From Actinorhabdospora filicis (GTDB lineage Bacteria; Actinomycetota; Actinomycetes; Mycobacteriales; Micromonosporaceae): DNA of 64,000 nucleotides. The position numbers and the translations under genes are program-made. Positions 13,008 through 63,818 of this stretch are shown here, piece after piece. Below the pieces are notes generated by a model, which searched no databases, was not told where the DNA came from, and worked only from the letters and a program-made list of their open reading frames with translations. The stretch covers positions 724,106 to 788,105 of the forward strand of contig NZ_BSTX01000001.1 in the NCBI RefSeq assembly GCF_030269765.1. The letters run 5' to 3'. Position 1 is the stretch's first letter. Each line of letters begins with the position of its first letter.

Positions 13008-13028
13008 CCGCACTGGAAACGGGGACCC

Positions 13029-14465: not shown

Positions 14466-14512
14466 GCACGGCGAGTACATTGCCCGAGCCCATCTCACTT
14501 TAGGAGCCCATC

Positions 14513-28999: not shown

Positions 29000-29016
29000 T
29001 CGCCATTATCTGGCGA
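29000..29016. promoter_or_regulatory. inverted repeat TCGCCA-N5-TGGCGA
   Basis: A 6-5-6 inverted repeat lies in the 191-bp gap between the two coiled-coil genes, about 43 bp before the second start. It has operator-like size and position, but no regulator is linked to it. Confidence 0.35.
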
Positions 29017-29058
29017 TAGCGTCCGACGAGGCGGGGTTCGGCATGTGAGGATGTGGCT

Positions 29059-30765
29059 ATGTCTCAAGGCGCGGGTGGCGATTTCTTCTCGACCTTCAAC
29101 GGTCCGGAGGTCGGCGGTGGTTTCGACCTCCAGATGCGCGGCTACGACAAAAAACAGGTAGACGCCTACATCCAGCGGATGGACGCGCAGCTGACCAGCC
29201 TGGCCGCCGAGCGGGCCGAGGCGCAGGCGCAAGTGGACGGTCTGGTCGCGCAGGTGCAGCAGCTCCAGGCGCAGATCTACGACATCCGCCGCCGCGCCGC
29301 CGTCGGCGAGCAGGCCAGCTACGAGCACCTCGGGTCGCGCGTCGGGCACATCCTGACCGTGGCGGCCGAGGAGGCCGAGGACATCAAGAAGAAGGCGCAG
29401 GAGGCCGTCGCCGGTCAGCGCGCCGAGGTGGACCGCATCCTCGCGCAGGCCAATGAGGAGGCCGAGGCCGCCCGCCGCGACTTCGAGACGACCCTGGCCG
29501 CGCGCCGCAACGCCGCCGAGAAGGCCGAGGCCGAGCGCCGCGCCGCGGTGGACGCCGAGCTGCAGCGCCAGAGCCAGCGCGCCAAGACCCTCGTCGCGCA
29601 GGCCCAGGAGCAGGCCGCGCAGATCGCCCAGCAGGCCCAGGAGGCCGCGCAGCAGACCCGCGCCGCCGCCGACGAGCAGGCCCGCCAGCTGGTCGCGCAC
29701 ATCGAGAAGCTGCGCGGCGAGGCGCAGCAGACCAAGCAGACCGCCGAGGTCGAGGCCGAGCAGGTCAAGCAGGCCGCCGGCGCCGAGGCGCAGCAGGTCA
29801 CCCAGGCCGCGCGCGAGGCCGCCGAGAAGGCCGTCGCCGAGGCGCAGGCCGTGGCCCAGCAGACCCGCGACGCCGCCCTGGGCGAGGCCAAGAAGCTGCG
29901 CGACGAGACCATCGGCGAGACCAACCGCATCCGCAGCGAGACGACCACGCAGATGCGCACCTTCCGCACCGAGACCGAGCAGGCCGCGCAGAAGATCACC
30001 GCCGACGCCGCCGCCGAGGCCGAGCGCGTCCGCAAGGAGGCCGACGCCCACGTCGCCGAGGCCGAGCAGCACAAGCGCGCCGCCGGTGAGCAGGCCGCCG
30101 CGCTGACCGCAGAGTCGGAGAAGAAGGCCGCCGAGACCATCCGGACCGCAGACGAGTACGCCGACGGCAAGCGCCGCGACGCCGACGAGTACGCCGCGAA
30201 GGTCACCGGCGAGGCCGCCGAGCGCGCCAAGAACGTCACCGCCGAGACCGACGCCAAGGTCGCCGAGCTCACCGCGGGCGCGGCCAAGAAGGCCGAGGAG
30301 ACCCTCGCCGGAGCCGACCGCACCGCCGCCGAGACCGTCGCCAAGGCCGAGAAGCGCGCCGAGGACCTCAAGGCCCGCGCCGAGGAGGGCGCCAAGCGCG
30401 CCGCCGAGGCCGCCCGCCGCGACTCCGAGGCCATGCTCGACACCGCCCGCGCGCAGGCCGAGGCGATCCTCGCCGACGCCGCCGAGGGTAAGGCGCCGGA
30501 AGCGAAGGCCGCCGAGAAGCCGCAGGCCGCGCAGCAGCCCAAGGCGCCCGCGCCCCAGAAGGCCGAGCAGCAGAAGGCCGAGGCCCCCAAGCAGGAGGCG
30601 AAGCCCGAGGCGGCCAAGCCGGAGGCGAAGGCCGCGCCGAAGTCCGACGTCAAGCCCGTGCCCGCCGGTGAGGAGCCGACCGAGCCGATGCCGAAGGCCA
30701 CCGCGGCCAAGGACGAGGCCACCCAGGTCCTGCCGAAGACCACGGCGAGCGCCGGTAAGAAGTAA
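29059..30765 (+). CDS. second DivIVA-domain coiled-coil protein, Ala/Glu-rich
   Basis: 568 residues. The N-terminal DivIVA motif reads LQMRGYDKKQVDAYIQRM (about residues 25-42). A long alanine-rich coiled coil (about 45-480) follows, with many heptad-like EAERVRKEADAHV-type units. The C-terminal tail of about 90 residues is low-complexity Lys/Pro/Ala/Gln. It is probably a filament-forming polarity or cell-envelope-growth protein acting with its neighbour; this is inference from Scy/FilP-type architecture. The ATG at 29059 is preferred because GAGG lies 8 nt upstream. A perfect 12-bp hairpin follows the gene. Confidence 0.82.
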   Translation: MSQGAGGDFFSTFNGPEVGGGFDLQMRGYDKKQVDAYIQRMDAQLTSLAAERAEAQAQVDGLVAQVQQLQAQIYDIRRRAAVGEQASYEHLGSRVGHILTVAAEEAEDIKKKAQEAVAGQRAEVDRILAQANEEAEAARRDFETTLAARRNAAEKAEAERRAAVDAELQRQSQRAKTLVAQAQEQAAQIAQQAQEAAQQTRAAADEQARQLVAHIEKLRGEAQQTKQTAEVEAEQVKQAAGAEAQQVTQAAREAAEKAVAEAQAVAQQTRDAALGEAKKLRDETIGETNRIRSETTTQMRTFRTETEQAAQKITADAAAEAERVRKEADAHVAEAEQHKRAAGEQAAALTAESEKKAAETIRTADEYADGKRRDADEYAAKVTGEAAERAKNVTAETDAKVAELTAGAAKKAEETLAGADRTAAETVAKAEKRAEDLKARAEEGAKRAAEAARRDSEAMLDTARAQAEAILADAAEGKAPEAKAAEKPQAAQQPKAPAPQKAEQQKAEAPKQEAKPEAAKPEAKAAPKSDVKPVPAGEEPTEPMPKATAAKDEATQVLPKTTASAGKK

Positions 30766-30782
30766 CAACGCGTGACCGCGAC

Positions 30783-30810
30783 GGGCCGCCGGGGTGTTCC
30801 CCGGCGGCCC
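30783..30810 (+). terminator. perfect 12-bp hairpin
   Basis: GGGCCGCCGGGG and its complement flank a TGTT loop, 17 nt after the stop of the coiled-coil gene. Confidence 0.75.
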
Positions 30811-30913
30811 TCGCCGTCGCTGCTGGTGAGCGCGGCGGCACGCGCCGAGGCCGTCCGTGCCCACATCTCCGCGCGTCCCGCCGGTCGGGGCGAAACGCCG
30901 ATACAGTGGCCGC

Positions 30914-32071
30914 ATGTCCACGCAGGCCCCACGACCGCCCGAGAATCCGGCGGAGCACGCCGAAGAGTCCGATGGGGACCTCGCCGCTCCCGCGGAACCG
31001 GTCGCCGAGACTCCCGCCGTCCCGAACCCGTACGGCGAACCCGGGCGCCCGTTCACCCGCAACCCGTTCACCTTCGGGCTGCTGGCCGGGCTCGGCCTCA
31101 CCGTGGCCTACCTGCTGTTCCTGGGCCTCCAGGCCGCCGGTGGCGTCCTGATCTCGATCCTGGTCGCCGGTTTCCTGGCCATCGGCATCAACCCGATCGT
31201 GGTGCGCGTGCAGCGCCTGGTCAAAAGGCGCGGCCTCGCGGTGGCCATCGTCGCCTTCGGCATGGCCGTCGTCTTCTGCGGTGGGCTGGCGCTGCTGCTG
31301 CCTGCGGTGATCGAGCAGGTCACCGCGTTCATCAACGCGCTGCCCGGCTACATCGAGGGCCTCAAGGGCAACCGCTGGATCAACGACCTGAACAACGAGT
31401 ACCAGCTCATCGAGCGCCTCAAGAGCGCCGCCAGCGCCGAGAACATCACCAGCGCCGCCGGTGGGCTGTTCTCGGTGCTCGGGCAGGTCTTCGGGACCGC
31501 GTTCAACGCGATCATGGTGGTCATCCTGACCCTCTACTTCCTGGTCTCCTTCGACAAGCTGAAGGCCGGGGCCTACGCCCTCCTGCCGGCTTCTCGGCGT
31601 CCGCGCGCGCAGGTGCTCGGGGACGAGATCCTCGTCAAGGTCGGCAACTACACCATCGGCGCCCTCGGCATCGGCGCGATCGCGGGCGTCACCTCGCTGA
31701 TCTTCATGATCATCGCGGGTATCCCCTACGCGTACGCGCTGGCGCTCATCGTGGCCGTTTTCGATCTCATCCCACAGATCGGGGCCACGCTCGGCGCCGT
31801 TATCGTGTCCCTCGTGGGCTTCTCCCAGTCGATAGCGGTGGGAATCGCCTGCGTCATCTTCTTCGTCCTGTACCAGCAAGTGGAGAACTGGCTGATCTAC
31901 CCACGGATGATGAGCCGCTCGGTGAAGGTGAGCGACCTCGGCGCGATCCTCGGCCTGCTGATCGGAGCGGCCCTGTTCGGGATCGTGGGCGCCCTCGTCG
32001 CCGTCCCGGCCGTGGCGGCGATCCAGCTGCTGGTGCGCGAGGTGCACATCCGCCGCCAGGACCTCGCATAG
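30914..32071 (+). CDS. AI-2E family (PerM-like) transporter
   Basis: 385-residue membrane protein of the AI-2E/PerM family. A disordered N-terminal stretch of about 55 residues rich in Pro/Ala/Glu precedes eight predicted TM helices. The family features are GFLAIGINPIVVRVQRLVKRRGLAV, a periplasmic-type helical segment after TM3, LYFLVSFDKL and the re-entrant VFDLIPQIGATLG, followed by YQQVENWLIYPRMM. Members have been described as exporters of autoinducer-2 or as Na+/H+ antiporters; the substrate is unknown here. A TACAGT box 6 nt before the ATG suggests leaderless transcription. Confidence 0.9.
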   Translation: MSTQAPRPPENPAEHAEESDGDLAAPAEPVAETPAVPNPYGEPGRPFTRNPFTFGLLAGLGLTVAYLLFLGLQAAGGVLISILVAGFLAIGINPIVVRVQRLVKRRGLAVAIVAFGMAVVFCGGLALLLPAVIEQVTAFINALPGYIEGLKGNRWINDLNNEYQLIERLKSAASAENITSAAGGLFSVLGQVFGTAFNAIMVVILTLYFLVSFDKLKAGAYALLPASRRPRAQVLGDEILVKVGNYTIGALGIGAIAGVTSLIFMIIAGIPYAYALALIVAVFDLIPQIGATLGAVIVSLVGFSQSIAVGIACVIFFVLYQQVENWLIYPRMMSRSVKVSDLGAILGLLIGAALFGIVGALVAVPAVAAIQLLVREVHIRRQDLA

Positions 32072-51460: not shown

Positions 51461-53962
51461 TCATGAGAGCGCGGGCGCCTCTCCCCCGGCGACCACGGCG
51501 GCCCGCACGCCGGCCAGCCCGCGCGCCCAGGACGTCAGGACGCGCTCCTCCACCCCGTCGCGGCCCAGCCCGACGGCGTAGCGGGTGACCCCGCCGTCCT
51601 CGGCGAAGGGACGCGGCCAGGCGTGCGCGTCGGGCGGCAGCTCGGCCAGGAGGGCGTTGACGCGCCCGCGCATGCGGCCCCGGTTCTCCTCGCCGGACAC
51701 CGTCAGCACCGCCCACGAGCGGTGGCGGCGGTGCATCGGGGGTGGCGCGAGCAGCGACGGCGACGCGGCCAGTTCCCAGGCGCGGTAGAGCTCCTCGGTG
51801 ATGAGGTCGGCCATGCCGGGCCGGACCTGAGCGGTGCAGGAGCGCACCGGCGGGGTGGGCGTCAGGATCGTCATGGCGTCACCGGTCGCCTCGGGGACGC
51901 CGTCGAGCGCGACGGGCGCGCTCCAGTCCCAGGCGGCCCAGTGGCCGAAGAAATCGGCGAGGGAACCCTCCGACACCGCCGCCAGCACGGTCCAGGCCAG
52001 CCCGGGCGGGGACCCGAAGGGCGCGCTGTCGATGCCGCGCGCCCGCGCCCACGCCTTGACCCGGCGGGTCAGCGCGGGATCGGCGCGCCCGGCGAGCGCG
52101 GCGGCGTCGGTGATGGCGCTGCGGGCGATGGTGTCGCCGGGCGCGGCGATCATGACGTCCACGGGCGTCTGGCCGAGGTGGAGGCGCAGGCCGGGCACGC
52201 GGGCGTCGGTGAGCTCGCGGAAGCCGGTGACGCCGGGCAGGACCGCGACGGCGGCGGGGTCGAGGGTTCCGGTGGCGACAAGGTCGACGTCGGCGTCGGG
52301 GAGTTCGCAGCCGATGGCGCGTGAGCCGACGAGGTGCAGTCCGGCTTCGGGCAGTGCCGCCGCGAGGCGTTCCCGGACGCCGGTGGCGTCGACGGCGGGG
52401 AACGCGCGCGGTGGCGGCTCGGTCCAGGTGATCTCGCCGGTGCCGAGGGCGATGGTGGCGCGGGGTTCCATGGGCCCGTCGCCGCGCCGGGACAGCAGGG
52501 TCAGCGCGCCGACGGGGACGTCCACCGTGGGCACGCGGGGCGCGAAGTCGCCTTTGCCGAGGGTCAGGTGCGGGACGAACGCGCGCCCGGCGAGGCGCGG
52601 GAAGGGCCGCTCCAGCGCCTCGCGCAGGGCGGTCCAGCCGTCGCCGCCGGGGTGCTGCCACACCGTGCCCTGCTCGAAGCGGCGGATCTCGCCGAGGCGG
52701 GCGGTGAAGGGCGCGGTCCGCGCCAGGACGGCCGAGACGAGCCCGGCGGCGCTTTCGAAGTCGGCCTCGGGCACGAAGCCGAAGAGCACGTTCACGTGCG
52801 GCGGCCAGCGCTCGAAGGACGGGTCGTGCGCCCGGCGGACCTCCTGGAGCGGCGCCCACGCCGACTGCGGCGGGAGCCACGCGAGGGCGGTGCGCGCGGT
52901 CGGCGGCGCGTCCAGGACCTCGCCGGTGGCGGACCGGCCGAGCTCGACGGACAGCCCGAAGTGGTCGGAGGGGAACAGCCCGCCGGTGGCGGTGTCGCCG
53001 TGCAGGGACGCCGAGGCCGCGCGCGGCCCGCGCAGAAAGACCCGGTCGATGCGCCCGGAGCGCCCGGTCAGCGAGGCGACCGCCGCCAGCGGGTTGACGG
53101 TGGGGTCGAAGGTGGGCGTCTCGTCACCGCGGGCCGACAGCCACGCGTCGGTCATGGCCAGCGCGGACGCGGGCCGCTCGCCGGTCTCGTTGAAGTCGCC
53201 CATGACCACCACGTCGCCGTCCACTCCGGACAGTCCCTCGGCGATGCGGGCGAGCTCGCCCTCGCGGCGGTCGTGCCCACCGGTGGTGTGGTCGCTGGTG
53301 AGGTGGGTGGTGACGACGGTGAGGGGCCCGGTGGCGGTCTCGACGACGACGGCGGCGACGGCCTTGTGGCCGGACAGGGCGTGCCAGCCGGCCTCGCGGA
53401 CGGGCAGGCGCGACAGCAGGACGAGCCCGGCGGCGTCCACGTCGGCGGGTTCGCCGAGCAGGGCCCAGCCCCGGCGGGTCCACGGTTCGAGCAGGTCCAG
53501 GAGGGGCCGTTCGGCCTCCTGGAGGGCGATGACGTCGGCGCCGGAATCGGCGAGGGCGGCCAGCAGCAGGGGCCGCCGCTCGGCGGTGAGGATCCGGTGG
53601 GATTCGTAGCGGTCCCACAGGGTGTTCCAGGTGAGCACGCGCACGGCGGCGGCCGTCCCGGACGCCTCGCCGCGCACCGGGCGGGGCGCGAAGAACGGCG
53701 GGCGCAGCAGGCGCTCGTGGCGGACGAGCCCGTGCCCGGCGGAGTCGAGGACGTCGAGGCCGGTGGCGCGGTCCCACACCGGCGTCCCGTCGGCCTCCAC
53801 GAACAGCACGCGGTGCCAGGGCACGTCGCCGCCGGGGGTGAACGCGGTGAACGGGACGCGTTTGGGCTCGCGGCCGCGCTGGGCGAGGCCGAGCACGAAG
53901 CGGGCGGGGTCGAAGCGGGCGTCCCAGCGGACGCGGTGGTAGATCTCGTCACTGGTGCGCAT
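51461..53962 (-). CDS. multidomain RNA repair protein (MJ1316 + EEP + 2H + nucleotidyltransferase)
   Basis: 833 residues with four domains fused. About 1-70: MJ1316/DUF504-like RNA-end recognition domain (SDEIYHRVRWD ... WHRVLFVEADG). About 105-345: endonuclease/exonuclease/phosphatase (EEP) fold with WNT (Asn113), Glu149 in LQEAE, His220, MGDFNE (Asp256) and PSDH (334). About 385-500: 2H phosphoesterase with H389-x-N391 and H465-L-T467. About 530-830: polymerase-beta-type nucleotidyltransferase with GSR (546-548) and DADVD (Asp558/560) plus a poly(A)-polymerase-like C-terminal half. Proposed to process damaged RNA ends. The start overlaps the RNA ligase stop by 14 nt. The domain series matches RNA repair systems described from comparative genomics; no activity has been shown here. 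Confidence 0.82.
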   Translation of the reverse strand: MRTSDEIYHRVRWDARFDPARFVLGLAQRGREPKRVPFTAFTPGGDVPWHRVLFVEADGTPVWDRATGLDVLDSAGHGLVRHERLLRPPFFAPRPVRGEASGTAAAVRVLTWNTLWDRYESHRILTAERRPLLLAALADSGADVIALQEAERPLLDLLEPWTRRGWALLGEPADVDAAGLVLLSRLPVREAGWHALSGHKAVAAVVVETATGPLTVVTTHLTSDHTTGGHDRREGELARIAEGLSGVDGDVVVMGDFNETGERPASALAMTDAWLSARGDETPTFDPTVNPLAAVASLTGRSGRIDRVFLRGPRAASASLHGDTATGGLFPSDHFGLSVELGRSATGEVLDAPPTARTALAWLPPQSAWAPLQEVRRAHDPSFERWPPHVNVLFGFVPEADFESAAGLVSAVLARTAPFTARLGEIRRFEQGTVWQHPGGDGWTALREALERPFPRLAGRAFVPHLTLGKGDFAPRVPTVDVPVGALTLLSRRGDGPMEPRATIALGTGEITWTEPPPRAFPAVDATGVRERLAAALPEAGLHLVGSRAIGCELPDADVDLVATGTLDPAAVAVLPGVTGFRELTDARVPGLRLHLGQTPVDVMIAAPGDTIARSAITDAAALAGRADPALTRRVKAWARARGIDSAPFGSPPGLAWTVLAAVSEGSLADFFGHWAAWDWSAPVALDGVPEATGDAMTILTPTPPVRSCTAQVRPGMADLITEELYRAWELAASPSLLAPPPMHRRHRSWAVLTVSGEENRGRMRGRVNALLAELPPDAHAWPRPFAEDGGVTRYAVGLGRDGVEERVLTSWARGLAGVRAAVVAGGEAPALS

Positions 53963-55604
53963 CGGGTGCTCCGGCGGTGTCGGCGACCGTTCCGTCCGCG
54001 TCGATGTAGCGGGTGCGGTGGGCCTCGGCGGGGTACGGCGGCGTGTAGCGGGCGAGCTGGCCGGCCAGCACGTGCGGGGGGACGCGGTGCTCGCGGGTGT
54101 CGTTGCGGCGGGCGAGTTCGGTCTCGTCGGTGAGGAACACCGCGTGGGTGACCAGGGCGTCGTGGCGGGCGGCGACGGCGTGGACGGAGGCGCGCTGGTG
54201 CGGGTTGAGGCAGGTGGCGTCCCACACGACGGTGCGCCGGCCGGTGAGTTCTCCGGCGAGGCGGTGGAGGCCCTCGCGGTGGACGGCGGCGTTGTCGCGC
54301 TGGTCGGCGCGTGAGCCGCGCGCGGCGCGCAGGGCGTCCAGGGACACCAGCGCGTCAGCGCCGAGTGTGGCGGCGTAGGTGGACTTGCCGCTGCCGGCGG
54401 GCCCGGTGAGCATGATCAGGCGCGGGAAGGCGCCCTCGCGCCAGCGCCAGGTGAGCGCGCCGGCCTCCTCGGGGGTGTGGACGCGGCCTTCGGCGAAGGC
54501 CTCGCGCGTCTCGGCCCAGCGGCGTGCGCGCACATCATCGTCGCCGTCGAACCCGTCGTACACGGGACGCGCGCGCGGCAGCTCGGCGGCGTGCAGGGCC
54601 GACCACTCGACCTCTTCGCCGGGCTCGACGGCCATGGCGAGGGCGTGCAGGACGTCGAGGTCGGCCGAGAAGGACATGCGCAGCAGCCCGGCGCGGCGGC
54701 GCTCGTCCGGGAAGGGCTCCGACAGGCGCGGCCGCAGGCCGGCGAGGTCGGCGACGCGGCGGGCGAGCCCGGGTCCGACGCGGGCGGCGAGGCGCCCGGC
54801 GAGCCGGGTGCGGGGGACGTCGTGGGCGAGGGCGGCCAGGACGCCCGACAGGCGCGCGTCGCCGGTGCGCCCGCCGAGGCGCGCGGCGGCGTCGAGGGCC
54901 GCCTCGGCGTGGGTGGCGGGCAGGCCGGTGGCCGCGGCGAGCGCGGCGATGTCGGGGACGCCGCCCGAGCGCGTCTCCCACAGGGCGGCCCGCGGTCCCA
55001 GGCCGTTGGGGACGACCGCCACGTGCATCCAGTGCGTACCGGTCTTCACATGCCGGGGGCGGACCCATTTGGCGACCCGGGAGCCGAACTCGCCGAGGGT
55101 GAAGGCGCCCGCGTCGCGCACGACGTAGCCCTCGGCGCGGCCGGTGTCGACGGCGAGCCCGCGCACCGCCCGCTCGTCGTAGACGCCGCGCCACAGCACG
55201 CGCGGCACGGGCAGGCCGAGGGAGCGGGCGAAGGCGACGGTGTCGTCCCAGGACAGGCAGGTCTCGCCGGACCAGGCGGAGAAGGCGTAGAAGTGCGCGT
55301 CGAGGTCGTCGTAGGCGATGGAGTGGCGGGCGTAGAGGTTCTCGCCGCACACGCGCCACCCCGGCGGGATGAGCGGCCCGATGCGCCCGTGCAGGGCCTT
55401 GACCTTCGCCCGCGACGGGTGGTGCCCGGAGTCGAGAGACCGGGCGTGCAGGCCGTCGCGGTAGAGGGTGGTGTTCTCCCCGTCGAGCTTCTCGGTGACG
55501 ACTACCTCGCGGCCGCCGAGCGCGACGCTCCCGGCGCGCAGGTCGTCGGGTGTGTGGCCGGGCGACCAGGGGACGTGCGGTGTCCGTGGATACGAGACGC
55601 GCAT
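53949..55604 (-). CDS. RNA ligase fused to P-loop polynucleotide kinase
   Basis: 551 residues. The N-terminal about 195 residues are an Rnl2-like ATP-dependent RNA ligase: nucleotidylated Lys39 in EKLDGEN, RVCGENLYARHS (motif III), EGYVVRD (motif IV, Glu158) and AKWVRPRHVKTG (motif V lysines). A helical middle domain of about 180 residues follows; its identity is unclear, with HD-like features possible. The C-terminal kinase has Walker A GPAGSGKST (401-409) and Asp/Arg residues of a 5' polynucleotide kinase. Ligation plus 5'-phosphorylation is the sealing and healing half of RNA repair. It is first of a two-gene operon with the four-domain repair protein. The ATG has GGGGAGGAG upstream. Confidence 0.85.
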   Translation of the reverse strand: MRVSYPRTPHVPWSPGHTPDDLRAGSVALGGREVVVTEKLDGENTTLYRDGLHARSLDSGHHPSRAKVKALHGRIGPLIPPGWRVCGENLYARHSIAYDDLDAHFYAFSAWSGETCLSWDDTVAFARSLGLPVPRVLWRGVYDERAVRGLAVDTGRAEGYVVRDAGAFTLGEFGSRVAKWVRPRHVKTGTHWMHVAVVPNGLGPRAALWETRSGGVPDIAALAAATGLPATHAEAALDAAARLGGRTGDARLSGVLAALAHDVPRTRLAGRLAARVGPGLARRVADLAGLRPRLSEPFPDERRRAGLLRMSFSADLDVLHALAMAVEPGEEVEWSALHAAELPRARPVYDGFDGDDDVRARRWAETREAFAEGRVHTPEEAGALTWRWREGAFPRLIMLTGPAGSGKSTYAATLGADALVSLDALRAARGSRADQRDNAAVHREGLHRLAGELTGRRTVVWDATCLNPHQRASVHAVAARHDALVTHAVFLTDETELARRNDTREHRVPPHVLAGQLARYTPPYPAEAHRTRYIDADGTVADTAGAPDAHQ

Positions 55605-56379: not shown

Positions 56380-56916
56380 ATGACCGACTGGGCCGATCTC
56401 GTCCTGCACCCCGTGCGCATCCGCGTCCTGCGCGCGCTCGCCCGGGGCGGGCGCACCACCCGCGAGCTCACCGCCGCGCTCGCCGACGTCCCCCAGGCCA
56501 GCCTCTACCGGCACCTGGCGGCCCTCACCAAGGGCGGGATCATCGCCATCGCCGAGGAGCGCAAGGTGCGCGGGACCGCCGAACGCGTCTACGCGCTCGC
56601 CCCAGGGGGCACCACCATCCCGGCCGCGCAGCTGGCCGGGGCGACCGCCGAGGACCACGGGCGCTACTTCACCGCCTTCGTCTCCACCCTGCTGGCCGAC
56701 TTCTCCCGCTACCTCGGCCGCGGCGAGCCCGACCTGGCCGCCGACGGCGCCGGCTACCGCTCGGTGGTCCTCCACCTCGACGACGCCGAGCTCGCCGCGT
56801 TCGCCGCCTCTCTCGCCGGGGTCATCGCGCCCCTGCTCGGCAATCCCCCGGGCGGCGGCCGCGTCGCCCGCCAGTTTTCGACGGTGCTCATGCCCGTCGA
56901 TGAAGAAGGGAACTGA
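56380..56916 (+). CDS. ArsR-like winged-helix regulator
   Basis: 178 residues. N-terminal winged helix (HPVRIRVLRALARGGRTTRELTAAL ... QASLYRHLAALTKGGII) with a longer C-terminal helical domain (about 90-178) of unknown ligand specificity. The ArsR fold is clear but the zinc/arsenic Cys motif is absent. Upstream lies a palindrome with matching arms, probably its own operator. It is followed after 3 nt by a small protein of unknown function, likely in the same operon. Confidence 0.83.
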   Translation: MTDWADLVLHPVRIRVLRALARGGRTTRELTAALADVPQASLYRHLAALTKGGIIAIAEERKVRGTAERVYALAPGGTTIPAAQLAGATAEDHGRYFTAFVSTLLADFSRYLGRGEPDLAADGAGYRSVVLHLDDAELAAFAASLAGVIAPLLGNPPGGGRVARQFSTVLMPVDEEGN

Positions 56917-56919: not shown

Positions 56920-57285
56920 ATGCCGACCGTCACCGTCACCGACACCGCCGTGGACATCCGCTTCACCGGGTTCGAGCGGCCGTTCACCGGCCGCGGCGAG
57001 GTCGTCGTGCCGCTCACCGGGATCACCGAGGCGACCGCCGTGGACGATGCGCTGCGGGCGGCCCGGGGCACCCGCAAGGGACTGGGCTTCACCGGCGTCG
57101 CCAAGATCGGCACCTGGGGCCTGATCCGGGGCCCGCGCATGCTCGTCGCCGCCCATCGCGGGACGCCCGGGCTGCTGCTGCGCCTCGCCCCGGGCACCCT
57201 GCCGGACCACGACGCGATCCTGGTGTCCCACCCCGACGCGCCCGGGCTCGCCGAGCGGATCCGCAGCGCGGCCGTCACCGCCTGA
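56920..57285 (+). CDS. small conserved protein, PH-like fold possible
   Basis: 121 residues, no signal peptide. Beta-rich sequence with VDIRFTGFERPFTGRGEVVVPL, a helix around DDALRAARG, then IGTWGLIRGPRMLVAAHRG and LLLRLAPGTLPDHDAILVSHPDAP, ending in an Ala-rich helix. This pattern suggests a bacterial PH-like fold. No characterised family recognised. It directly follows an ArsR-like regulator (GAAGAAGGG ribosome site), so cotranscribed. A perfect 13-bp hairpin ends the operon. Confidence 0.6.
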   Translation: MPTVTVTDTAVDIRFTGFERPFTGRGEVVVPLTGITEATAVDDALRAARGTRKGLGFTGVAKIGTWGLIRGPRMLVAAHRGTPGLLLRLAPGTLPDHDAILVSHPDAPGLAERIRSAAVTA

Positions 57286-57541: not shown

Positions 57542-57808
57542 GTGACCAGTATCAGCGTGGCCGAACTCAAGGCGGCCATCGCCGCCGCGATGCAGCAGGT
57601 GTCCGAGGGACAGGAGGCGATCAAGGTGGCCTCCGAGAAGCTCCAGGCCGCGCAGCAGGTCCTCGGCGCCCTCCTCCAGGGCAGCCAGCACCAGTCGGTG
57701 GAGTCCGCGCAGGCCGCCCTCGCGCAGGCCGGTCAGGAACTGGAGCAGTGCATGGCGGCCACCCTCGCCGCCGCCGAGCAGGCGACCAGCTACGCCGCGA
57801 CACTGTAG
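57542..57808 (+). CDS. 88-residue helical-hairpin protein (WXG100-like size)
   Basis: From the GTG at 57542, 88 residues, almost entirely helical: helix 1 about 5-48 (ELKAAIAAAMQQVSEG...), a short LLQGSQHQS turn, and helix 2 about 52-88. This is the size and fold of WXG100/ESX substrates, but the W-x-G motif is not present. It lies just ahead of a FtsK/SpoIIIE ATPase locus, as ESX substrates often do. An upstream ATG at 57500 is in frame, but no better ribosome site supports it. The relation to type VII systems is inference. Confidence 0.62.
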   Translation: MTSISVAELKAAIAAAMQQVSEGQEAIKVASEKLQAAQQVLGALLQGSQHQSVESAQAALAQAGQELEQCMAATLAAAEQATSYAATL

Positions 57809-57817
57809 GGGCGCCCC

Positions 57818-58600
57818 ATGGCGACCATGATGGAACTCGGGCAGGCCGTCCGCACCGCCGCCGCGGAACTGCCCCTCGCGGGTACGACGCAGGCCATGAC
57901 GCGCTTCGACGAGGCGCGCGCGACCCTCACCCAGGCGCTCACCGACTCGGTCGAGCCCGCCGGGCTCCCGCACCTCAACCGCGCCCAGACCCACCTCGAC
58001 AAGGCCGTCACGCAGCTCATGGCCGCCGCCGAGCACCTCGACGAGTACCTGGTCTCCATCGGACTGTCCCCCACCGCGCCCAAAGGGGACACCGGGCCGG
58101 TCCCGTCGGCCGCGCCGCCCGCGCCCGTCGCCGACGGCACCCGCGCCTGGTGGCTGGCCCGCGTCGACGAGATCACCCAGGCCGACGATGACAACAAGGC
58201 CAAGGCCGACACCGAGATCCGCCACAAGGAGCTCACCCCGCTCTTCGACGCCCTCGTCAAGGCCGCCGCCGGGTCCGACCGCAACCTCTACCGCCGCGAG
58301 CTGCACGCCACCGACCCCGCCGTCGGCGTCCGCCTGCCCGCGCTGACCTGGCCGCGCGTGCGCATCCTCGCCGCCGAACTCGCCGGCGGCGCCCCCACCG
58401 CCAAGAACCTCGACGCCGTCGGCGCCAAGACCCGCGACGCCGTCCGGCGCTTCCTGCCGGGTCTGGAGGACAAGGCCGACCAGGTCGAACTCGCCGCCGC
58501 CTGCCACGTGGCCGCCGCCCCCGAACGGCACCCGGTCGACATCGCCGCGATGGGCCCCGTGCTCGTCGCCGCGCTCACCAAAGCCCTCGGGAGGACATGA
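57818..58600 (+). CDS. helical protein of unknown function in the FtsK locus
   Basis: 260 residues. The N-terminal about 85 residues are helical (ELGQAVRTAAAELPLAG ... LTDSVEPAGLPHLNRAQTHLD), followed by a Pro/Ala linker (about 85-105) and a helical C-terminal domain with WLARVDEI, TEIRHKELTPLFDALVKAAAG and LTWPRVRILAAELAGG. No family recognised. The ATG is 9 nt after the small helical gene and its stop overlaps the FtsK start (ATGA). Translationally coupled within one operon. Confidence 0.65.
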   Translation: MATMMELGQAVRTAAAELPLAGTTQAMTRFDEARATLTQALTDSVEPAGLPHLNRAQTHLDKAVTQLMAAAEHLDEYLVSIGLSPTAPKGDTGPVPSAAPPAPVADGTRAWWLARVDEITQADDDNKAKADTEIRHKELTPLFDALVKAAAGSDRNLYRRELHATDPAVGVRLPALTWPRVRILAAELAGGAPTAKNLDAVGAKTRDAVRRFLPGLEDKADQVELAAACHVAAAPERHPVDIAAMGPVLVAALTKALGRT

Positions 58601-61233
58601 TGGCGGGGTGGCGCACCGTACTCGCCGACACGGTCAGCCGCGACCTGGCCACCGCCAGGGACGCCGCCAGGGCCCTGCGCGAGCACGCGCAGGCCACCGC
58701 GGCCTACGCCACCGAGACCGCACGGCGCACCCTCGAAGCCGGACGCGACGAGCAGGCGCGCCTGGCCGCCGAGCACCGCGACAGGACCACCGCGCTGGAG
58801 GACCAGACCGCGCAGGCCACCGCGTCCACGCTGGCGCGCCTGGCCGCCCTGGCCAAGGAGTACGCGCCCGGCGCCGCCGGTGACGCCTGGGCCGACTGGC
58901 ATCCGACCACGCACGGGCGCGGGGTGGCACCCGGGCTGCTGCGCATCGGCGTCCTGGACGCCCCCGGCGAACCGCCCGCGCTGGCGCCGCTGCTGGACCG
59001 CGCGCACCTGGTGTGCGCCACCGACCCCGGCGCGCTGCTGCCGGGCATCCTGCTGCGCGCCCTGGGCACCACTCCGCCGGGCAGCGTGCAGCTGACCGTC
59101 TACGACCCCGAGCGCCTCGGCGGCTCCCTGGCCGGGCTCGCGCCACTGGCCCCGGCGGGGCTGCTCAGCTTCGTCGGCCCCAATGGGCTCTCCGACATGC
59201 TCGACGAGCTCGTCGAGCAGATCCGCCGCATCAACGAGACCGTGCTGGCCGGCGAGTACCACTCGCTGCTGGAGCTTGCCGAGAAGACCGGCCGCCGCCC
59301 CGAGCCGTGGCGGGTGGCGGTGCTGCTGGACGACAATGGCCAGGACGACTGGACCGCCAAGCAGCGCGCGCAGCTGGCGCGGATCCTGCGCACCGGCGTC
59401 GCCTGCGGCGTCCACGTCATCGTCCAGGGCGACCCGGGCGAGCTCACCGGCCCCGACGTGGAGTCGGTCACCGCGACCGGCACGTCCATGACCGCCGACT
59501 TCGCCGTCCGGCTCGACCCGCCGCCACCGGCCACGCTGGTCACCGGGACGTGCCGGACGATCGCCGAGCGCTTCGCCGCCGGACCCGACCCGGCCGTCTT
59601 CGGCGATCTGCTGCCCGCCGACGACGGTGAACTGTGGACGCACTCCTCGGCCGCCGGGCTCACCGCGCCCATCGGCGAGGGCGCCGAGGGCCGCCTCATC
59701 GAAGTCACCCTCGGCGACAACCCGCCGCACGCGCTCATCGGCGGCCCGTCGGGCGCGGGCAAGACGAACCTGCTGTACGCGTGGATCGGCGCGCTGACCG
59801 CCCGCTACGGGCCCGACGAGCTGGCCCTGTACCTCCTGGACTTCAAGGAGGGCGTGTCCTTCGCGCGGTTCGCGCGCGGCCGCCGCGACCCCAGCTGGCT
59901 GCCGCACGTCCGGCTGGTCGGCGTCAACATCAACGACGACCGCGAGTTCGGGCTGGCGCTGCTGCGGCACCTGCGCGACGAGCTGCGCCGCCGCGCCGAG
60001 GCCGCCAAGCGGCACGAGGCCACCAAGCTCGAAGAGCTGCGGCACCAGGACCCCGGCGGGCGCTGGCCGCGGATCGTGGCCATCATCGACGAGTTCCAGG
60101 TCCTGCTCGACGGCCGCGACCAGGTCAGCAACGAGGCCGTCGGCCTCCTGGAGGACCTCGCGCGGCGCGGCCGCTCGCAGGGCATCCACCTGGTCCTGGC
60201 CAGCCAGGACGTCGCCGGGATCGAGGCCCTGTGGGGCCGCCCGGCGCTGGTCGCGCAATTCACGCTGCGGGTGGCGCTGCCCAAGGCGCGGCGGATCCTC
60301 GCCGAGACCAACACCGCCGCCGACGAGATCCCCCGCTACCACGCGGTGGTCAACTCCGACTCCGGCGTGACCTCCGCCAACCGCGTCGTGCGCGTCCCGG
60401 ACGCCTCCAACCGCAGCGCGTGGGACCCGCTCCAGCAGCGCCTGTGGCGGCAGCGCCCGGCCGACAATGACGAGCCGCGCCTGTTCGACGGCGACCACGT
60501 GCCCTCGCTGACCGACGCCGTCGACGTGGGCGGCACCGTCCCCACCGCGCTGCTCGGGCAGACCATCGACGTCAGCACCGGCTCGGCGCGGCTGCGGCTG
60601 ACCCGCACCGTCGGGCGCAACCTCGCCATCCTCGGCACCCGCACCCAGGAGGCCTGCGACATCCTCGCCTCGGCGGCGATCTCGGTGGCCCGGCAGGGCG
60701 AGGCGCGCTTCACCATCTTCTGCCCCGACCCCGACGCGCGCCCGGCCGCCGACCGGCTCGCGCTGACCCTGGGCGCGGAGATGCGCGAGAGCCTCGCCGA
60801 GGTCCTCGGCGACCTCTCCGGCGCCGAGTCCGGCGTCCCGCACCTGGTGCTGCTGTACGCGGTGGACGCCGCCAGCGGCGGCCTGGACGCCCTCGCCAAG
60901 GAACGCTTCCGGCAGCTGCTGCTCACCGGGCCCGAGCGGCGCATCCACACCCTCGGCTGGTGGCGGTCGGTGCCGCGCCTGCGCGAGGACCTCGGCGGCT
61001 TCGCCGCGCGCTTCGACTCCATCGACGCCTGGCTCGCCCTCGACGTCCACGGACCCGAGCTGGCGCCGCTGTCGCCGATCCCCGGCGGGCCCCCGTGGTA
61101 CCCCCGGCCCCGGCGCGGGCTGTTCTTCGACCGGGCCGTGCACCGCCACCCCGAGGTCGTCATCCCCTACGACACCGCCGCTGCCACCAGCCCGCACGGC
61201 TCGATGCTGCTGGGAGAGCCGCATGCCGGGTGA
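58597..61233 (+). CDS. FtsK/SpoIIIE-type ATPase
   Basis: 878 residues. The N-terminal about 90 residues are coiled coil (RDAARALREHAQATAAYA ...). The FtsK/SpoIIIE motor has Walker A GGPSGAGKT at about 382-391, ALYLLDFKEGVSF, Walker B VAIIDEFQVLL at about 496-502, and LVLASQDV. A second motor-like half around 670-690 has a degenerate Walker A (ILGTRTQEAC), so it is probably inactive. This resembles the multi-domain EccC coupling ATPases of type VII secretion, with one active and one silent motor. No TM segment is apparent in this polypeptide. Locus function is unassigned. Confidence 0.82.
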   Translation: MMAGWRTVLADTVSRDLATARDAARALREHAQATAAYATETARRTLEAGRDEQARLAAEHRDRTTALEDQTAQATASTLARLAALAKEYAPGAAGDAWADWHPTTHGRGVAPGLLRIGVLDAPGEPPALAPLLDRAHLVCATDPGALLPGILLRALGTTPPGSVQLTVYDPERLGGSLAGLAPLAPAGLLSFVGPNGLSDMLDELVEQIRRINETVLAGEYHSLLELAEKTGRRPEPWRVAVLLDDNGQDDWTAKQRAQLARILRTGVACGVHVIVQGDPGELTGPDVESVTATGTSMTADFAVRLDPPPPATLVTGTCRTIAERFAAGPDPAVFGDLLPADDGELWTHSSAAGLTAPIGEGAEGRLIEVTLGDNPPHALIGGPSGAGKTNLLYAWIGALTARYGPDELALYLLDFKEGVSFARFARGRRDPSWLPHVRLVGVNINDDREFGLALLRHLRDELRRRAEAAKRHEATKLEELRHQDPGGRWPRIVAIIDEFQVLLDGRDQVSNEAVGLLEDLARRGRSQGIHLVLASQDVAGIEALWGRPALVAQFTLRVALPKARRILAETNTAADEIPRYHAVVNSDSGVTSANRVVRVPDASNRSAWDPLQQRLWRQRPADNDEPRLFDGDHVPSLTDAVDVGGTVPTALLGQTIDVSTGSARLRLTRTVGRNLAILGTRTQEACDILASAAISVARQGEARFTIFCPDPDARPAADRLALTLGAEMRESLAEVLGDLSGAESGVPHLVLLYAVDAASGGLDALAKERFRQLLLTGPERRIHTLGWWRSVPRLREDLGGFAARFDSIDAWLALDVHGPELAPLSPIPGGPPWYPRPRRGLFFDRAVHRHPEVVIPYDTAAATSPHGSMLLGEPHAG

Positions 61234-61948
61234 GAACCCACGCGACGCCTACAAGTCGGCGACACAGACGCTCTCGCGCACCTTCTCCGGCCGCCGCGAG
61301 CAGCAGGAGCGGCTGCAGAAGAAGCACCGCGAGGACGTGGCCGCCATCCGCGCCCGCGTCGGGGAGACCCTCGCCGCCCGCGACGCCGCCGCGAAGTCGG
61401 CCGCCGAGGCCAGCGCGAAGGTCGACGACATCGACGAGCGCGCCGGGGCGCTGTGGCGCGACCTGCTCGGCTACGTCGGCTCCGGGCGGATCCCGCCGCG
61501 GCTGCGCGACATCGGTGAGGCGCCGCGCGCGATCGAGGCGCGGGGCGTGGTCCGCAAACCGAAGGCCCCCCGCGTCCCGGACCCCATGGCACTGCTGGAA
61601 CGCGCGCGCAAGACCCTCGCGCTGGCCCGACGCGGGCAGCTGGAGTTCCCGCCGCCGCGGTACCTGGTCGCGCTGATGGCGCTGATCGGGGCGGTCTGCG
61701 GGCTCGCGGCGGTCATCGGCGCGCAGGCGATCCTGGACGCCGCCGGGGGCGGTGACGGGAACAAGGCGCTCGTGCTGCGCCCGCTGGCGCTGGTGTGCGT
61801 GTTCCTGGGGCCGTTCATCGGCCTGCCATTGGCGAGCATCTATCTGGGCTGGCGGCACCGGCAGCGGCCGCGCCAGCACCACATCTGGCTGCTCATCGGC
61901 TCGGGCGTGGTCGCGCTGGTCATCGCCGTTCCACTGCTGATGCTGTAA
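61223..61948 (+). CDS. coiled-coil membrane protein of the FtsK locus
   Basis: 241 residues. The N-terminal half is charged and helical (about 25-75, REQQERLQKKHREDV ...), followed by a Pro-containing linker and three TM helices at about 150-170, 180-208 and 218-240. The topology places the coiled coil in the cytoplasm, where it could meet the ATPase. It overlaps the ATPase stop by 11 nt, so it is the last gene of the four-gene operon. No family recognised. Confidence 0.7.
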   Translation: MPGENPRDAYKSATQTLSRTFSGRREQQERLQKKHREDVAAIRARVGETLAARDAAAKSAAEASAKVDDIDERAGALWRDLLGYVGSGRIPPRLRDIGEAPRAIEARGVVRKPKAPRVPDPMALLERARKTLALARRGQLEFPPPRYLVALMALIGAVCGLAAVIGAQAILDAAGGGDGNKALVLRPLALVCVFLGPFIGLPLASIYLGWRHRQRPRQHHIWLLIGSGVVALVIAVPLLML

Positions 61949-62073
61949 GCGGCCCCAAACGTCCGTCCGCCGTTCCCGCACCCGCACAGACCCGGTTACC
62001 GAACAGTACTTGCGAGGTCACCTTCCGGTCGCGTTCGGAACAGAGCATGAAGTCGCCCAAAAAGGAGGCGGCC

Positions 62074-62844
62074 ATGCTCCCCGACCACGCCATCGTGGCG
62101 AACCCCCACCGGACCGACCTGGCTACCGACAACTCCCGTTACTCCATCCGCGTCGCCGACGCCGACGAGCTGCGCGCCGCGCAGCGGCTGCGGCACCGCG
62201 TCTTCGCCGGCGAGCTCGGCGCCCGCCTGCACTCCCCCCTGGCGGGACTCGACGTGGACACCTGGGACGCCCTCTGCGACCACCTCGTGGTCGTCGACGA
62301 CCCCACCGGCGAGGTCGTCGGCACCTACCGCATGCTGCCTCCCGGCCGCAGCCCCCGGCTCTACTCCGACACCGAGTTCGACCTGCGCGAACTCGACCCC
62401 TACCGGGCCGGTTTCGTGGAGACCGGACGCTCCTGCGTCGACCCGCAGCACCGCGGCGGCGCCGTCATCAACCTCATGTGGGCCGGCATCGCCCGCTACC
62501 TGCTGCTGACCGGCCACCGCCTCCTCGGCGGATGCGCGTCGGTTCCGGCCGCCGACGCCGACGAGGTGTGGGCCTACGTGAAGGACCGCCACCTGTCCGC
62601 CGACGTCCACGTCACCCCTCACAACCCGTGGCCGGTGAGCGAGGCGCGCGGCGACGTCAAGGCCGTCCCGCCGCTGCTGCGCGGCTACCTGCGGCTGGGC
62701 GCGAAGATCTGCGGCCCGCCGGCGCACGACCCCGACTTCGGGGTGGCCGACTTCTACGTCCTGCTCGACCTGGACAAGACCAACCCGCGCTACCTGAGGC
62801 ACTTCCTCGGTGAGCACGGCCTGGGCGAACTGGCCGCGGCATGA
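62074..62844 (+). CDS. OlsB-like ornithine N-acyltransferase (GNAT)
   Basis: 256 residues. GNAT-fold acyltransferase of the OlsB/hemolysin family, which transfers a 3-hydroxyacyl group from ACP to ornithine's alpha-amino group. RYSIRVADADELRAAQRLRHRVFAGELGARL, then FVETGRSCVDPQHRGGAVINLMWAGIARYL and ADFYVLLDL are family features. ATG 62074 is chosen because AAAGGAGG lies 5 nt upstream; an in-frame ATG at 62047 lacks this. The stop overlaps the acyltransferase start (ATGA). Together they form a probable ornithine-lipid synthesis pair. Confidence 0.86.
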   Translation: MLPDHAIVANPHRTDLATDNSRYSIRVADADELRAAQRLRHRVFAGELGARLHSPLAGLDVDTWDALCDHLVVVDDPTGEVVGTYRMLPPGRSPRLYSDTEFDLRELDPYRAGFVETGRSCVDPQHRGGAVINLMWAGIARYLLLTGHRLLGGCASVPAADADEVWAYVKDRHLSADVHVTPHNPWPVSEARGDVKAVPPLLRGYLRLGAKICGPPAHDPDFGVADFYVLLDLDKTNPRYLRHFLGEHGLGELAAA

Positions 62845-63818
62845 CCGGAGTCCGGGCGTGGGAGGAGACCGACCTGAACCGTGTGGGCGGGCCCGCCCGG
62901 GTGGAGACCGGCGGAACGAGCCCCGGCCCCTGGTTCCCCGTCTCCGACTGCTCCCCCGCCTGCCTGCCCGGGCCCGCCGCGCTGCCCACCGTCGGGCCGC
63001 TGCGACGGGTCCTGCGGCTGGCGGCGCTGCTGGCCGTCCTCCTCGCGGGACTCCTGGCCGTACCAGCCGCCCCCGCCCTCGCACCGCGCTTGGCACGGGC
63101 CGCGATGCGGGCGGTGGGGGTCCGGGTCCCGCTCCGCCCCAGGGACGAAGTCGAACCCGGCTCCCTCGTCGTCGCCAACCACTCCTCCTGGCTCGACGTG
63201 GTGGCCCTGGTGTCCCTGGGGCGCGGCCGGTCCCCGGTGCGGATGCTCGCCAAGCGCGAGGTCGGGTCCTGGCCGCTGGTCGGCGGGCTCGCCCGCCGCA
63301 CCGGCGCGCTGTTCGTGGACCGGGCCGCGCTGCGGAACCTGCCGTCCACCGTGGACGCCGTCGCGGCCCGCCTGCGCGGCGGGGAGAGCGTCGGGGTGTT
63401 CCCCGAGGCGACCACGTGGTGCCTCCCGGCGCGCGGGCGGTTCCGGCCCGCGCCCTTCCAGGCCGCCATCGACGCCGGGGCGCCGGTGGCGCCGGTGACC
63501 CTCTGGTTCACCCTCGCCGACGGCGCGCCGACCACCGCCGCCGGGTTCCTCGGCGAGGAGAGCTTCCTGGCCTCCCTCAAGCGCGTCATCGCCGTCAAGG
63601 GCCTCCTGCTGCACATCATCCCGTCGCCGCCGTTCCAGGCCGTCGGCGACCGCCGCGCGCTGGCCAGGCGCGCCGAGACCTCGGTGGTGCACGACGCGCT
63701 GGCCGGATTCGTCACCTACGCGCACCCCACGCCACGGGCCGTGAACACGGCGTGCCCGGCTCCCGCGTTTCAGGACGCGGTGGGCGGGCATCTGGCCGCC
63801 GTCACCGTCCCGGCGTAG
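62841..63818 (+). CDS. OlsA/PlsC-like 1-acylglycerol-3-phosphate acyltransferase
   Basis: 325 residues. The N-terminal part is hydrophilic then has a TM helix (about 53-80). The acyltransferase domain has NHSSWLD (the HxxxxD motif with catalytic His/Asp) and FPEATT, with VANHSSWLDVVALV as the landmark. In ornithine-lipid synthesis, OlsA adds the second acyl chain to lyso-ornithine lipid. PlsC function (phosphatidic-acid synthesis) is the alternative. It overlaps the OlsB-like gene by four bases. A hairpin at 63835-63866 ends the operon. Confidence 0.85.
   Translation: MTGVRAWEETDLNRVGGPARVETGGTSPGPWFPVSDCSPACLPGPAALPTVGPLRRVLRLAALLAVLLAGLLAVPAAPALAPRLARAAMRAVGVRVPLRPRDEVEPGSLVVANHSSWLDVVALVSLGRGRSPVRMLAKREVGSWPLVGGLARRTGALFVDRAALRNLPSTVDAVAARLRGGESVGVFPEATTWCLPARGRFRPAPFQAAIDAGAPVAPVTLWFTLADGAPTTAAGFLGEESFLASLKRVIAVKGLLLHIIPSPPFQAVGDRRALARRAETSVVHDALAGFVTYAHPTPRAVNTACPAPAFQDAVGGHLAAVTVPA

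What the first reader, a model, noticed from the sequence alone, without database searches (positions are those of the whole stretch)
57542..61948. Four-gene FtsK/SpoIIIE locus with a small helical-hairpin protein: reduced type VII-like system?
An 88-residue helical hairpin, a 260-residue helical protein, an 878-residue FtsK-type ATPase with one intact and one degenerate motor (ILGTRTQEAC in place of a P-loop), and a coiled-coil three-TM membrane protein are coupled by 1-11 nt overlaps or a 9-nt gap. EccC of ESX systems also pairs active and inactive motors and acts on WXG100-sized helical hairpins. Here the W-x-G motif and the EccB/D/E and mycosin genes are missing. It could be a stripped-down exporter, or a DNA- or peptide-moving machine of another kind.
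Basis: partly seen in the sequence, partly recalled or inferred. Interest (0 to 1): 0.72.

Follow-up and report, generated by a model that had tools for sequence, protein, structure and literature searches.

The report
Minimal type VII-like motor locus
This four-gene locus encodes an ATP-driven motor related to bacterial type VII secretion together with small helical "tag" proteins; in related bacteria the same kind of tag sits at the front of DNA- and RNA-attacking toxins, which suggests a stripped-down machine for moving toxins.

Summary
The four genes are real, overlapping and conserved. [quoted passage not shown] That architecture is in print for "mobile T7SS" and CoCoNuT-linked ATPases. 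In a motor-domain tree this family groups with soluble, WXG100-associated ATPases of other bacteria, apart from EccC.

The hairpin lies upstream of the ATPase in 65 of 80 named relatives (4 of the 15 misses are cut contigs). It lacks the W of WxG but keeps the turn G-S and ends Y-x-x-x-L-COOH. Gene 2 starts with a hairpin of the same family.

New here: hairpins of this family recur as the N-terminal domain of polymorphic toxins (DddA-like deaminase, CdiA_C, EndoU), some followed by Imm1 immunity genes, including a hairpin-DddA protein elsewhere in this genome. In 81 genomes of the family the hairpin was found only where the soluble ATPase was (65 of 65), whereas EccC is in all 81.

Best reading: a minimal T7SS-like machine whose clients are W-less hairpin proteins and hairpin-tagged toxins. 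Export is inferred, not shown. Verdict: new variant of a known kind.

The parts
57542..57808 (+). 88-aa W-less helical hairpin (hairpin inferred): turn LLQGSQH, C-terminus Y-A-A-T-L-COOH
   Evidence: family alignment A5: G47, L60 and Y84 invariant in 20 sequences; of 52 upstream genes of 60-100 aa in the named loci all end YxxxL, none has a W, 51 have GS
57818..58600 (+). 260-aa protein: hairpin of the same family (res 1-80), flexible linker (81-106), all-helical C-terminal domain (107-256) of unknown function
   Evidence: AlphaFold model pLDDT 82; hairpin profile vs gene-2 N-terminus hhalign E 4.5e-6; reversed controls 0.07-0.14 between the two families, but the reversed hairpin profile against itself reaches 1.6e-4
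58597..61233 (+). 878-aa EccC-like ATPase without transmembrane segment
58606..58863 (+). ATPase N-terminal long helix, probably coiled coil (res 4-89)
   Evidence: AlphaFold model
58939..59514 (+). ATPase D0: degenerate FtsK-like domain (about res 115-306), no P-loop
   Evidence: fold; weak D1-profile match (7e-4 in the window protein, 2.7e-6 in ortholog L047; 6 of 36 members); VIA alignment to EccC from residue 95
59743..59766 (+). Walker A of the one active motor (GPSGAGKT, res 383-390)
   Evidence: G383, G386, G388 invariant and K389 nearly so in A3
60073..60096 (+). Walker B of D1 (IVAIIDEF, res 493-500)
   Evidence: D498, E499, F500 invariant in A3
60610..60654 (+). degenerate P-loop position of D2 (PGRNLAILGTRTQEA, res 672-686)
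   Evidence: GRNLA(V/I)xG found in 75 of 80 named orthologs (regex)
61223..61948 (+). 241-aa membrane protein: N-terminal helical/coiled-coil part (by eye), TM at res 148-166, 188-206, 223-241
   Evidence: hydropathy: 3 segments in 65 of 71 downstream genes over 190 aa; homolog directly downstream in 78 of 80 named loci, the other two with a longer N-terminus or a cut contig

Best explanation
The locus is a minimal, actinobacterial, chromosomal type VII-like translocation machine. A coiled-coil, membrane-free EccC-type ATPase (degenerate-active-degenerate) is held at the membrane by its partner, the 3-TM protein. It recognises helical hairpin proteins of a W-less, WXG100-like family, probably through the hairpin turn (G-S) and the C-terminal Y-x-x-x-L or Y-x-x-x-(I/L)-G element, and moves them, alone or as the N-terminal tag of larger cargo. 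The 88-aa hairpin is the solo client or co-secretion partner; gene 2 is a resident hairpin-tagged client or adaptor; hairpin-tagged toxins (DddA-like, CdiA_C, EndoU) encoded elsewhere in the genomes are further clients, used against neighbouring bacteria, with immunity genes protecting the producer. Shown: gene order, conservation, ATPase architecture and relationships, hairpin fusions, co-occurrence. Inferred: physical interaction, membrane tethering, recognition signal, export.
For: ATPase: best PDB profile match is the EccC cytoplasmic domain 4nh0 (1.9e-41; FtsK 2e-10); Foldseek 4nh0 2.5e-28 across tandem domains against 3.5e-14 for FtsK. D1 tree: this family plus the soluble ATPases found beside WXG100-type or hairpin-like proteins in Rhodococcus, Caballeronia, Helicobacter and Deinococcus form one clade of 47 tips (support 95), apart from 14 EccC domains (84), rooted with one FtsK.

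Conservation: hairpin upstream on the same strand in 65 of 80 named loci, gene 2 homolog in 65 of 80, TM homolog directly downstream in 78 of 80. The profiles were built partly from these loci.

Hairpin as client tag: fused to DddA-like deaminase in this genome (L235, 6.8e-18); of 26 chosen fused proteins 14 match DddA-like, 2 CdiA_C, 1 EndoU; Imm1 is the next gene in 6 of 15 tested.

Co-occurrence, same 81 genomes: hairpin (E<=1e-5) in 65, all 65 with the ATPase (E<=1e-60, in 73); the 8 ATPase-less genomes all lack hairpins (hypergeometric 4e-7; by genus 4 of 4, 6e-4); EccC over cut-off in 81 of 81. In 16 genomes of other families of the order, hairpins at E<=1e-8 occur in the 3 with the ATPase and in none of the 13 without (one of the 3, G038, supplied a row of the profile).
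Against: No export, binding or toxicity was measured. The link hairpin to WXG100 is weak by sequence: against this genome's WXG100 proteins hhalign scores 21.2, against their reversed form 20.1; in PDB searches coiled-coil decoys (SH3BP5) come close to ESAT-6 or above it; PF06013 hits 5 of 10 members forward (best 9e-5) and also 5 of 10 reversed (best 0.043). Taken alone, D1 superposes better on the FtsK motor (Z 29.8, 271 residues) than on the single EccCb1 domain 9jv8 (Z 25.6, 252) or, over two domains, 4n1a (Z 26.7); the difference exceeds the tie margin. 8 of 81 genomes have the ATPase but no hairpin hit. 11 of 76 uncut named loci, an Actinoplanes-type group, have neither hairpin nor gene 2 beside the ATPase. 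EccC is in all 81 genomes, so its channel cannot be excluded as the exit route. The C-terminal domain of gene 2 is one conserved family, unlike a polymorphic toxin. 9 of the 26 fused proteins have no recognised toxin domain.
Confidence: 0.58

Rival explanations
1. Adaptor for canonical ESX: the soluble ATPase and 3-TM protein collect hairpin clients and hand them to the EccC channel, so it is an accessory of T7SSa, not a separate exporter.
For: EccC (TIGR03924 over cut-off) is in 81 of 81 family genomes and this genome has 7 matches at E<=1e-60; the locus has no candidate pore larger than a 3-TM protein.
Against: In two genomes of another actinobacterial family (G567, G630) the ATPase occurs beside small helical-looking proteins (by eye, not scored) with no EccCa match above 109 bits (cut-off 509); EssC-type ATPases were not searched there. 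Related loci on Caballeronia and Helicobacter plasmids are in Gram-negatives. The 8 ATPase-less family genomes have EccC yet no hairpin hit.
Confidence: 0.2
2. Intracellular conflict or stress machine: the ATPase handles or unfolds hairpin-tagged effectors inside the cell (abortive infection, phage defence), with no export. Related loci carry TerD, CARF, VWA, kinase, phosphatase and Hsp70 genes.
For: Neighbours in Rhodococcus and Caballeronia; Bell 2024 describes such ATPases within CoCoNuT defence islands.
Against: A shared N-terminal domain in front of different toxins with immunity genes is the layout that Zhang 2012 describes for secreted polymorphic toxins (passages); no such defence gene was recognised beside the window locus.
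Confidence: 0.18
3. DNA translocase: an FtsK-like motor acting on chromosome or plasmid DNA.
For: FtsK_SpoIIIE domain; D1 alone superposes best on the FtsK motor.
Against: Tandem degenerate-active-degenerate architecture; D1 profile score 56 bits for this genome's FtsK against 83-110 for EccC and 137-339 for soluble relatives outside the training set; frequent pairing with hairpins.
Confidence: 0.04

Closest known systems
"Mobile versions of T7SS": solo WXG domains with a YueA-like ATPase of 3 HerA/FtsK domains, only the middle one active (Zhang et al. 2012, PMC3482391; passages read)
   Same: Three FtsK domains, middle one active, small hairpin partners
   Different: Here in Actinomycetota (not in that footnote's list of lineages) and chromosomal; hairpin without W; 3-TM partner; hairpin-tagged gene 2 and toxins
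CoCoNuT-associated EssC-like ATPase with two WXG100 proteins (Bell et al. 2024, PMC11090510; passages read)
   Same: N-terminal coiled coil in place of FHA/TM, only the central ATPase domain active, one of two hairpins without WxG
   Different: No CoCoNuT, VWA or REase-like gene recognised beside this locus; a conserved 3-TM neighbour here
H. pylori WXG100/FtsK cluster (HP0062/HP0066; PMC4978471; passages read)
   Same: WXG100 plus FtsK-type ATPase called a minimal T7SS set, HNH/ENDO VII nuclease gene in the cluster
   Different: Gram-negative; W retained in the related Helicobacter plasmid locus (L185)
ESX/T7SSa EccC and WXG100 (4nh0, 4n1a; TIGR03924, PF06013)
   Same: EccC-like tandem motor; hairpin size; a Y-xxx-x element at the hairpin C-terminus
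   Different: No TM in the ATPase, no ESX membrane gene found nearby, no W, L-COOH or (I/L)-G in place of D/E
T7SSc-T7SSj (Garrett 2024, PMC11217815; abstract and first third of Results read)
   Same: Clusters built around an EccC/EssC ATPase and a WXG100 protein
   Different: Those are said to have the canonical ATPase and (almost always) a WXG100 protein; this ATPase is far below the EccC model cut-off

Membership tests
ESX / T7SSa | EccCa ATPase at curated cut-off | tested here: not met
   TIGR03924 87 bits, cut-off 509
ESX / T7SSa | membrane-anchored ATPase | tested here: not met
   no hydrophobic segment in the window ATPase; none in 77 of 80 orthologs, one in 3
ESX / T7SSa | WXG100 protein at PF06013 cut-off (27.3 bits) | tested here: not met
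   window hairpin: no PF06013 row at E<=1; 8 of 20 family members match weakly, best 9e-5; forward 5 of 10, reversed 5 of 10 at 0.043-0.64
ESX / T7SSa | EccB, EccD, EccE and mycosin alongside | tested here: not met
   no such hit in the three flanking genes scanned (56380-56916, 56920-57285, 62841-63818); 62047-62844 and genes further out were not scanned
Minimal/mobile T7SS with three-domain ATPase | three FtsK-type domains, only the middle one with P-loop | tested here: met
   exactly one GxxxxGK[ST] in 80 of 80 (at least one was required for selection)
Minimal/mobile T7SS with three-domain ATPase | N-terminal coiled coil, no TM | tested here: met
   helix 4-89; hydropathy
Minimal/mobile T7SS with three-domain ATPase | ATPase groups with soluble, WXG100-associated ATPases of other bacteria | tested here: met
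   47-tip clade, support 95; the sequences of the cited papers themselves were not in the tree
Minimal/mobile T7SS with three-domain ATPase | WXG100 partner | tested here: inconclusive
   sister Caballeronia locus has PF06013 at 30.8 bits; this hairpin is not separable from reversed controls by hhalign
Minimal/mobile T7SS with three-domain ATPase | mobility | tested here: inconclusive
   flanking gene lengths repeat within Micromonospora and within Glycomyces; no plasmid or phage record with 80% coverage
Polymorphic toxin trafficking domain (hairpin) | same N-terminal domain, different C-terminal toxins, immunity gene next door | tested here: met
   (relatives and this genome, not the window genes)
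FtsK/SpoIIIE DNA translocase | groups with chromosomal FtsK | tested here: not met
   in the tree FtsK served as outgroup; D1 fold alone is nearer FtsK
Any secretion system | substrate found outside the cell, dependent on the ATPase | not testable with these tools
   needs a deletion strain and secretome

The most novel reading that the evidence does not exclude
An autonomous, ESX-independent secretion machine of four genes whose signal is a W-less helical hairpin ending Y-x-x-x-L-COOH (solo) or Y-x-x-x-(I/L)-G (fused), and which delivers DddA-type deaminases and nucleases between Micromonosporaceae and other filamentous actinobacteria.
Probability: 0.35. Interest if true: 0.85.

Novelty: new variant of a known kind. 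Interest (0 to 1): 0.63.

Why it matters
If right, one conserved actinobacterial motor explains how a large set of hairpin-tagged polymorphic toxins is moved, and shows how little a type VII-like system can consist of. It gives a new trafficking domain by which toxins (including DddA-like deaminases, the enzymes used in DNA base editing; recalled) can be found by sequence alone. It also makes the question of which T7SS parts are essential testable in harmless soil and marine actinomycetes.

Tried and rejected
Hairpin as a clear WXG100 member: not proven. PDB profile hits to ESAT-6 and 4lws (E 0.001-0.005) are rivalled by coiled-coil decoys, and hhalign cannot beat reversed sequences. Kept as likely because sister loci carry PF06013 or near-PF06013 proteins.

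Gene 2 fold: VIA gave only generic hairpins for residues 1-89; its C-terminal domain was barely tested; no convincing Pfam or PDB match. PADLOC gave only motor-domain matches (mad8, SspH, HerA, mad3). SffA/SmeA of Streptomyces was considered from memory; one paper search was made, sequences were not compared. Plasmid or phage origin: no record with 80% coverage. DUF6244: 11 of 20 members, best 0.0034; the window member is below cut-off.

Paper searches on prior print. Among the listings and passages that I saw, none described this W-less hairpin fused to toxins. Anantharaman 2012, cited by Bell 2024 for stand-alone WXG100/FtsK operons, was not read.

Recounts: an earlier count of "gene 2" and "TM gene" took any close same-strand gene; replace it with homology counts. 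Rows dropped: two weak or partial hits (L292:419-1258, L303:3746-4876) and two duplicates were left out of A9; L235, L245, L232 and L234 were added. The fused loci were chosen for long open frames, so their proportions are no census. Start codons of the L235 and L245 fused proteins are not settled, and L284 and L290 may be frame-shifted (by eye; not mended).
Full report
WHAT IS THERE. The window lies in a 7.2 Mb genome whose ATPase is 85% identical to that of Phytomonospora endophytica. Gene calling finds the four genes as described: an 88-aa presumed hairpin, a 260-aa protein, an 878-aa FtsK-type ATPase and a 241-aa three-TM protein, with a 9-nt gap and overlaps of 4 and 11 nt. Just downstream are 62047-62844 (not scanned) and a PF01553 acyltransferase; upstream a HTH regulator and a small unmatched protein. 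No ESX component was found among the three neighbours scanned.

CONSERVATION. A hairpin of the family lies upstream on the same strand in 65 of 80; of the 15 misses, four contigs end there (L072, L083, L095, L112) and eleven are an Actinoplanes-type group with other genes upstream. At least two of those organisms carry a second copy with hairpin (A. nipponensis L103, P. deccanensis L113). A gene 2 homolog is present in 65 of 80, 64 in the expected position. A homolog of the TM protein is directly downstream in 78 of 80; the other two have a longer N-terminus (L056) or a cut contig (L090). These profiles contain rows from the same loci. From the window to ten orthologs outside its genus, hairpin and ATPase change slowly (50-65% and 58-64% identity), gene 2 and gene 4 fast (30-41% and 26-37%). 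The same genome holds two paralogous ATPases (39 and 38%); one has ATPase, TM protein and hairpin together (L010), the other (L009) a TM protein but no hairpin seen. Elsewhere the order ATPase, TM protein, 86-87-aa hairpin recurs (L129; Rhodococcus plasmid L181). Class-wide, 48 of 296 genomes have the ATPase at E<=1e-60; phylum-wide 7 of 396 in a broader draw.

THE MOTOR. AlphaFold gives a confident model (pLDDT 89.8): helix 4-89, then three alpha/beta domains. Only the middle one has Walker A and B. D0 has no P-loop but matches the D1 profile weakly in 6 of 36 members (7e-4 in the window's; best 2.7e-6). The D2 P-loop position reads PGRNLAILGTRTQEA. Sequence and tandem structure point to EccC: 4nh0 at 1.9e-41 by profile, 2.5e-28 by Foldseek, 705 residues aligned by VIA with rmsd 13.4, so the domain arrangement differs. 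Against this: D1 alone fits the FtsK motor better (Z 29.8, against 25.6 for a single EccC domain). D1 profile scores fall in the order: this family (346-472 bits, training set), other soluble ATPases (L034 339; the rest 137-287), EccC (83-110), FtsK (56). The tree (LG+G4, 62 domains, mafft alignment, rooted on one FtsK) puts all 47 soluble ATPases in one clade (95) beside the 14 EccC domains (84).

THE HAIRPIN. In 20 diverse members G47, L60 and Y84 are invariant and S48 and L88 nearly so. Of 52 upstream genes of 60-100 aa in the named loci, all end in Y-x-x-x-L and none has a W. WXG100 proteins carry W-x-G in the turn and a Y-x-x-x-D/E signal in the C-terminal helix (PMC3935865, passages). 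The correspondence with x-x-G-S and Y-x-x-x-L-COOH is a resemblance, not a proof. Sister loci with non-actinobacterial ATPases do have W in the small proteins: Caballeronia (PF06013 30.8 bits, above cut-off), Helicobacter (24.0) and Deinococcus (21.6), both below it. The N-terminal 80 residues of gene 2 match the hairpin family (E 4.5e-6; reversed controls between the two 0.07-0.14, though the reversed hairpin profile matches the hairpin profile itself at 1.6e-4), so gene 2 has the layout hairpin, linker, domain.

THE CARGO. A hairpin profile run on this genome finds further members away from the locus. Reading their frames shows hairpins at the front of other proteins. Pfam: this genome's L235 protein is hairpin plus DddA-like (6.8e-18); L245, from another genome, is the same (6.9e-19) with Imm1 next to it. 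Of 26 selected fused proteins 14 match DddA-like, 2 CdiA_C, 1 EndoU and 9 nothing at E<=0.001. In that set Y77 and G82, at the end of the hairpin, are the nearly invariant residues. Imm1 is the next gene in 6 of 15 tested. Several fused-hairpin genes have one or two solo hairpins in front (L232, L295, L297; also L298, L301, L308, L313, whose C-terminal parts match no toxin). The codon-based gene caller missed many of these genes, which may mean recent horizontal arrival (inference).

LINK BETWEEN MOTOR AND HAIRPIN. In the same 81 family genomes the hairpin (E<=1e-5) is in 65 and the ATPase (E<=1e-60) in 73; no genome has hairpins without ATPase; all 8 ATPase-less genomes, from four genera, lack hairpins; 8 genomes have ATPase without a hairpin hit (probabilities, corrected for relatedness only by the genus count). 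EccC is over cut-off in all 81, so hairpins follow the soluble ATPase and not EccC. In 16 genomes of other families of the order the same pattern holds, 3 of 3 against 0 of 13 at E<=1e-8. Two genomes of a further family have the ATPase beside small helical-looking proteins without an EccCa-sized match; EssC-type ATPases were not tested there.

MECHANISM AND LIMITS. The simplest account is an EccC-like motor, hexameric by family knowledge, tethered by the 3-TM protein, that moves hairpin proteins and hairpin-tagged toxins. What is shown are sequence and fold facts; binding, tethering, signal and export are inferred. An ESX adaptor and an intracellular conflict machine are live rivals.

KNOWN OR NEW. 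Zhang 2012 and Bell 2024 already describe ATPases with three FtsK domains, only the middle one active, with WXG100 partners, as mobile or stand-alone T7SS; PMC4978471 describes the Helicobacter form. What I did not find in print (nine searches, listed under Tried and rejected) is the actinobacterial chromosomal form with a W-less hairpin, a 3-TM partner, and that hairpin as the trafficking domain of polymorphic toxins. Hence: new variant of a known kind.

Noticed in passing
L235:5729-6502 (this genome, contig C2 about 469,728-470,501): Hairpin-DddA-like deaminase protein with a small overlapping next gene without Pfam match; a likely toxin/immunity pair of the window's own genome. Its start codon is not settled.
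   Followed up: partly
L231:6125-6724, L233:6092-6706, L242:6642-7280, L009:10176-10775 and 13162-13752: A recurrent ~200-aa family beginning about xIIxPVGRSLGPxY (by eye) sits beside hairpins and beside an ATPase paralog; no Pfam match for the two tested. Possibly an adaptor or regulator.
   Followed up: partly
L009:10843-12288 and L231:13223-15358: Serine/threonine kinase-like genes (by eye) close to an ATPase paralog and to an orphan hairpin.
   Followed up: no
L181 (Rhodococcus plasmid), L183 (Caballeronia plasmid), L182 (Rhodococcus plasmid): Related ATPase loci carry Hsp70, GrpE and TPR genes; VWA, CARF, PP2C and kinase genes; or TerD genes (annotations).
   Followed up: partly
L298:3296-3724, L247:3439-3846, L234:4463-4879: Fused hairpin proteins without a recognised toxin domain are followed by ~140-aa proteins that look alike by eye; unknown pair.
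   Followed up: no
window 51461-55604: Two adjacent minus-strand genes of 833 and 551 aa, the second looking like an RNA ligase joined to a kinase (by eye); a possible RNA-repair pair.
   Followed up: no
window 11601-15961: Three tandem similar lipoprotein-like genes with a shared DPxYPDxG segment (by eye, peptidase-like).
   Followed up: no
window 27635-30765: Two neighbouring DivIVA-like coiled-coil genes (by eye) in a stretch with strong AT skew (0.245 at 28001-32000).
   Followed up: no
L236-L241 (genome G012): A 3.5 Mb relative has 11 to 13 hairpin matches, several at the C-terminus of proteins with a glycine-rich hydrophobic segment (by eye).
   Followed up: no
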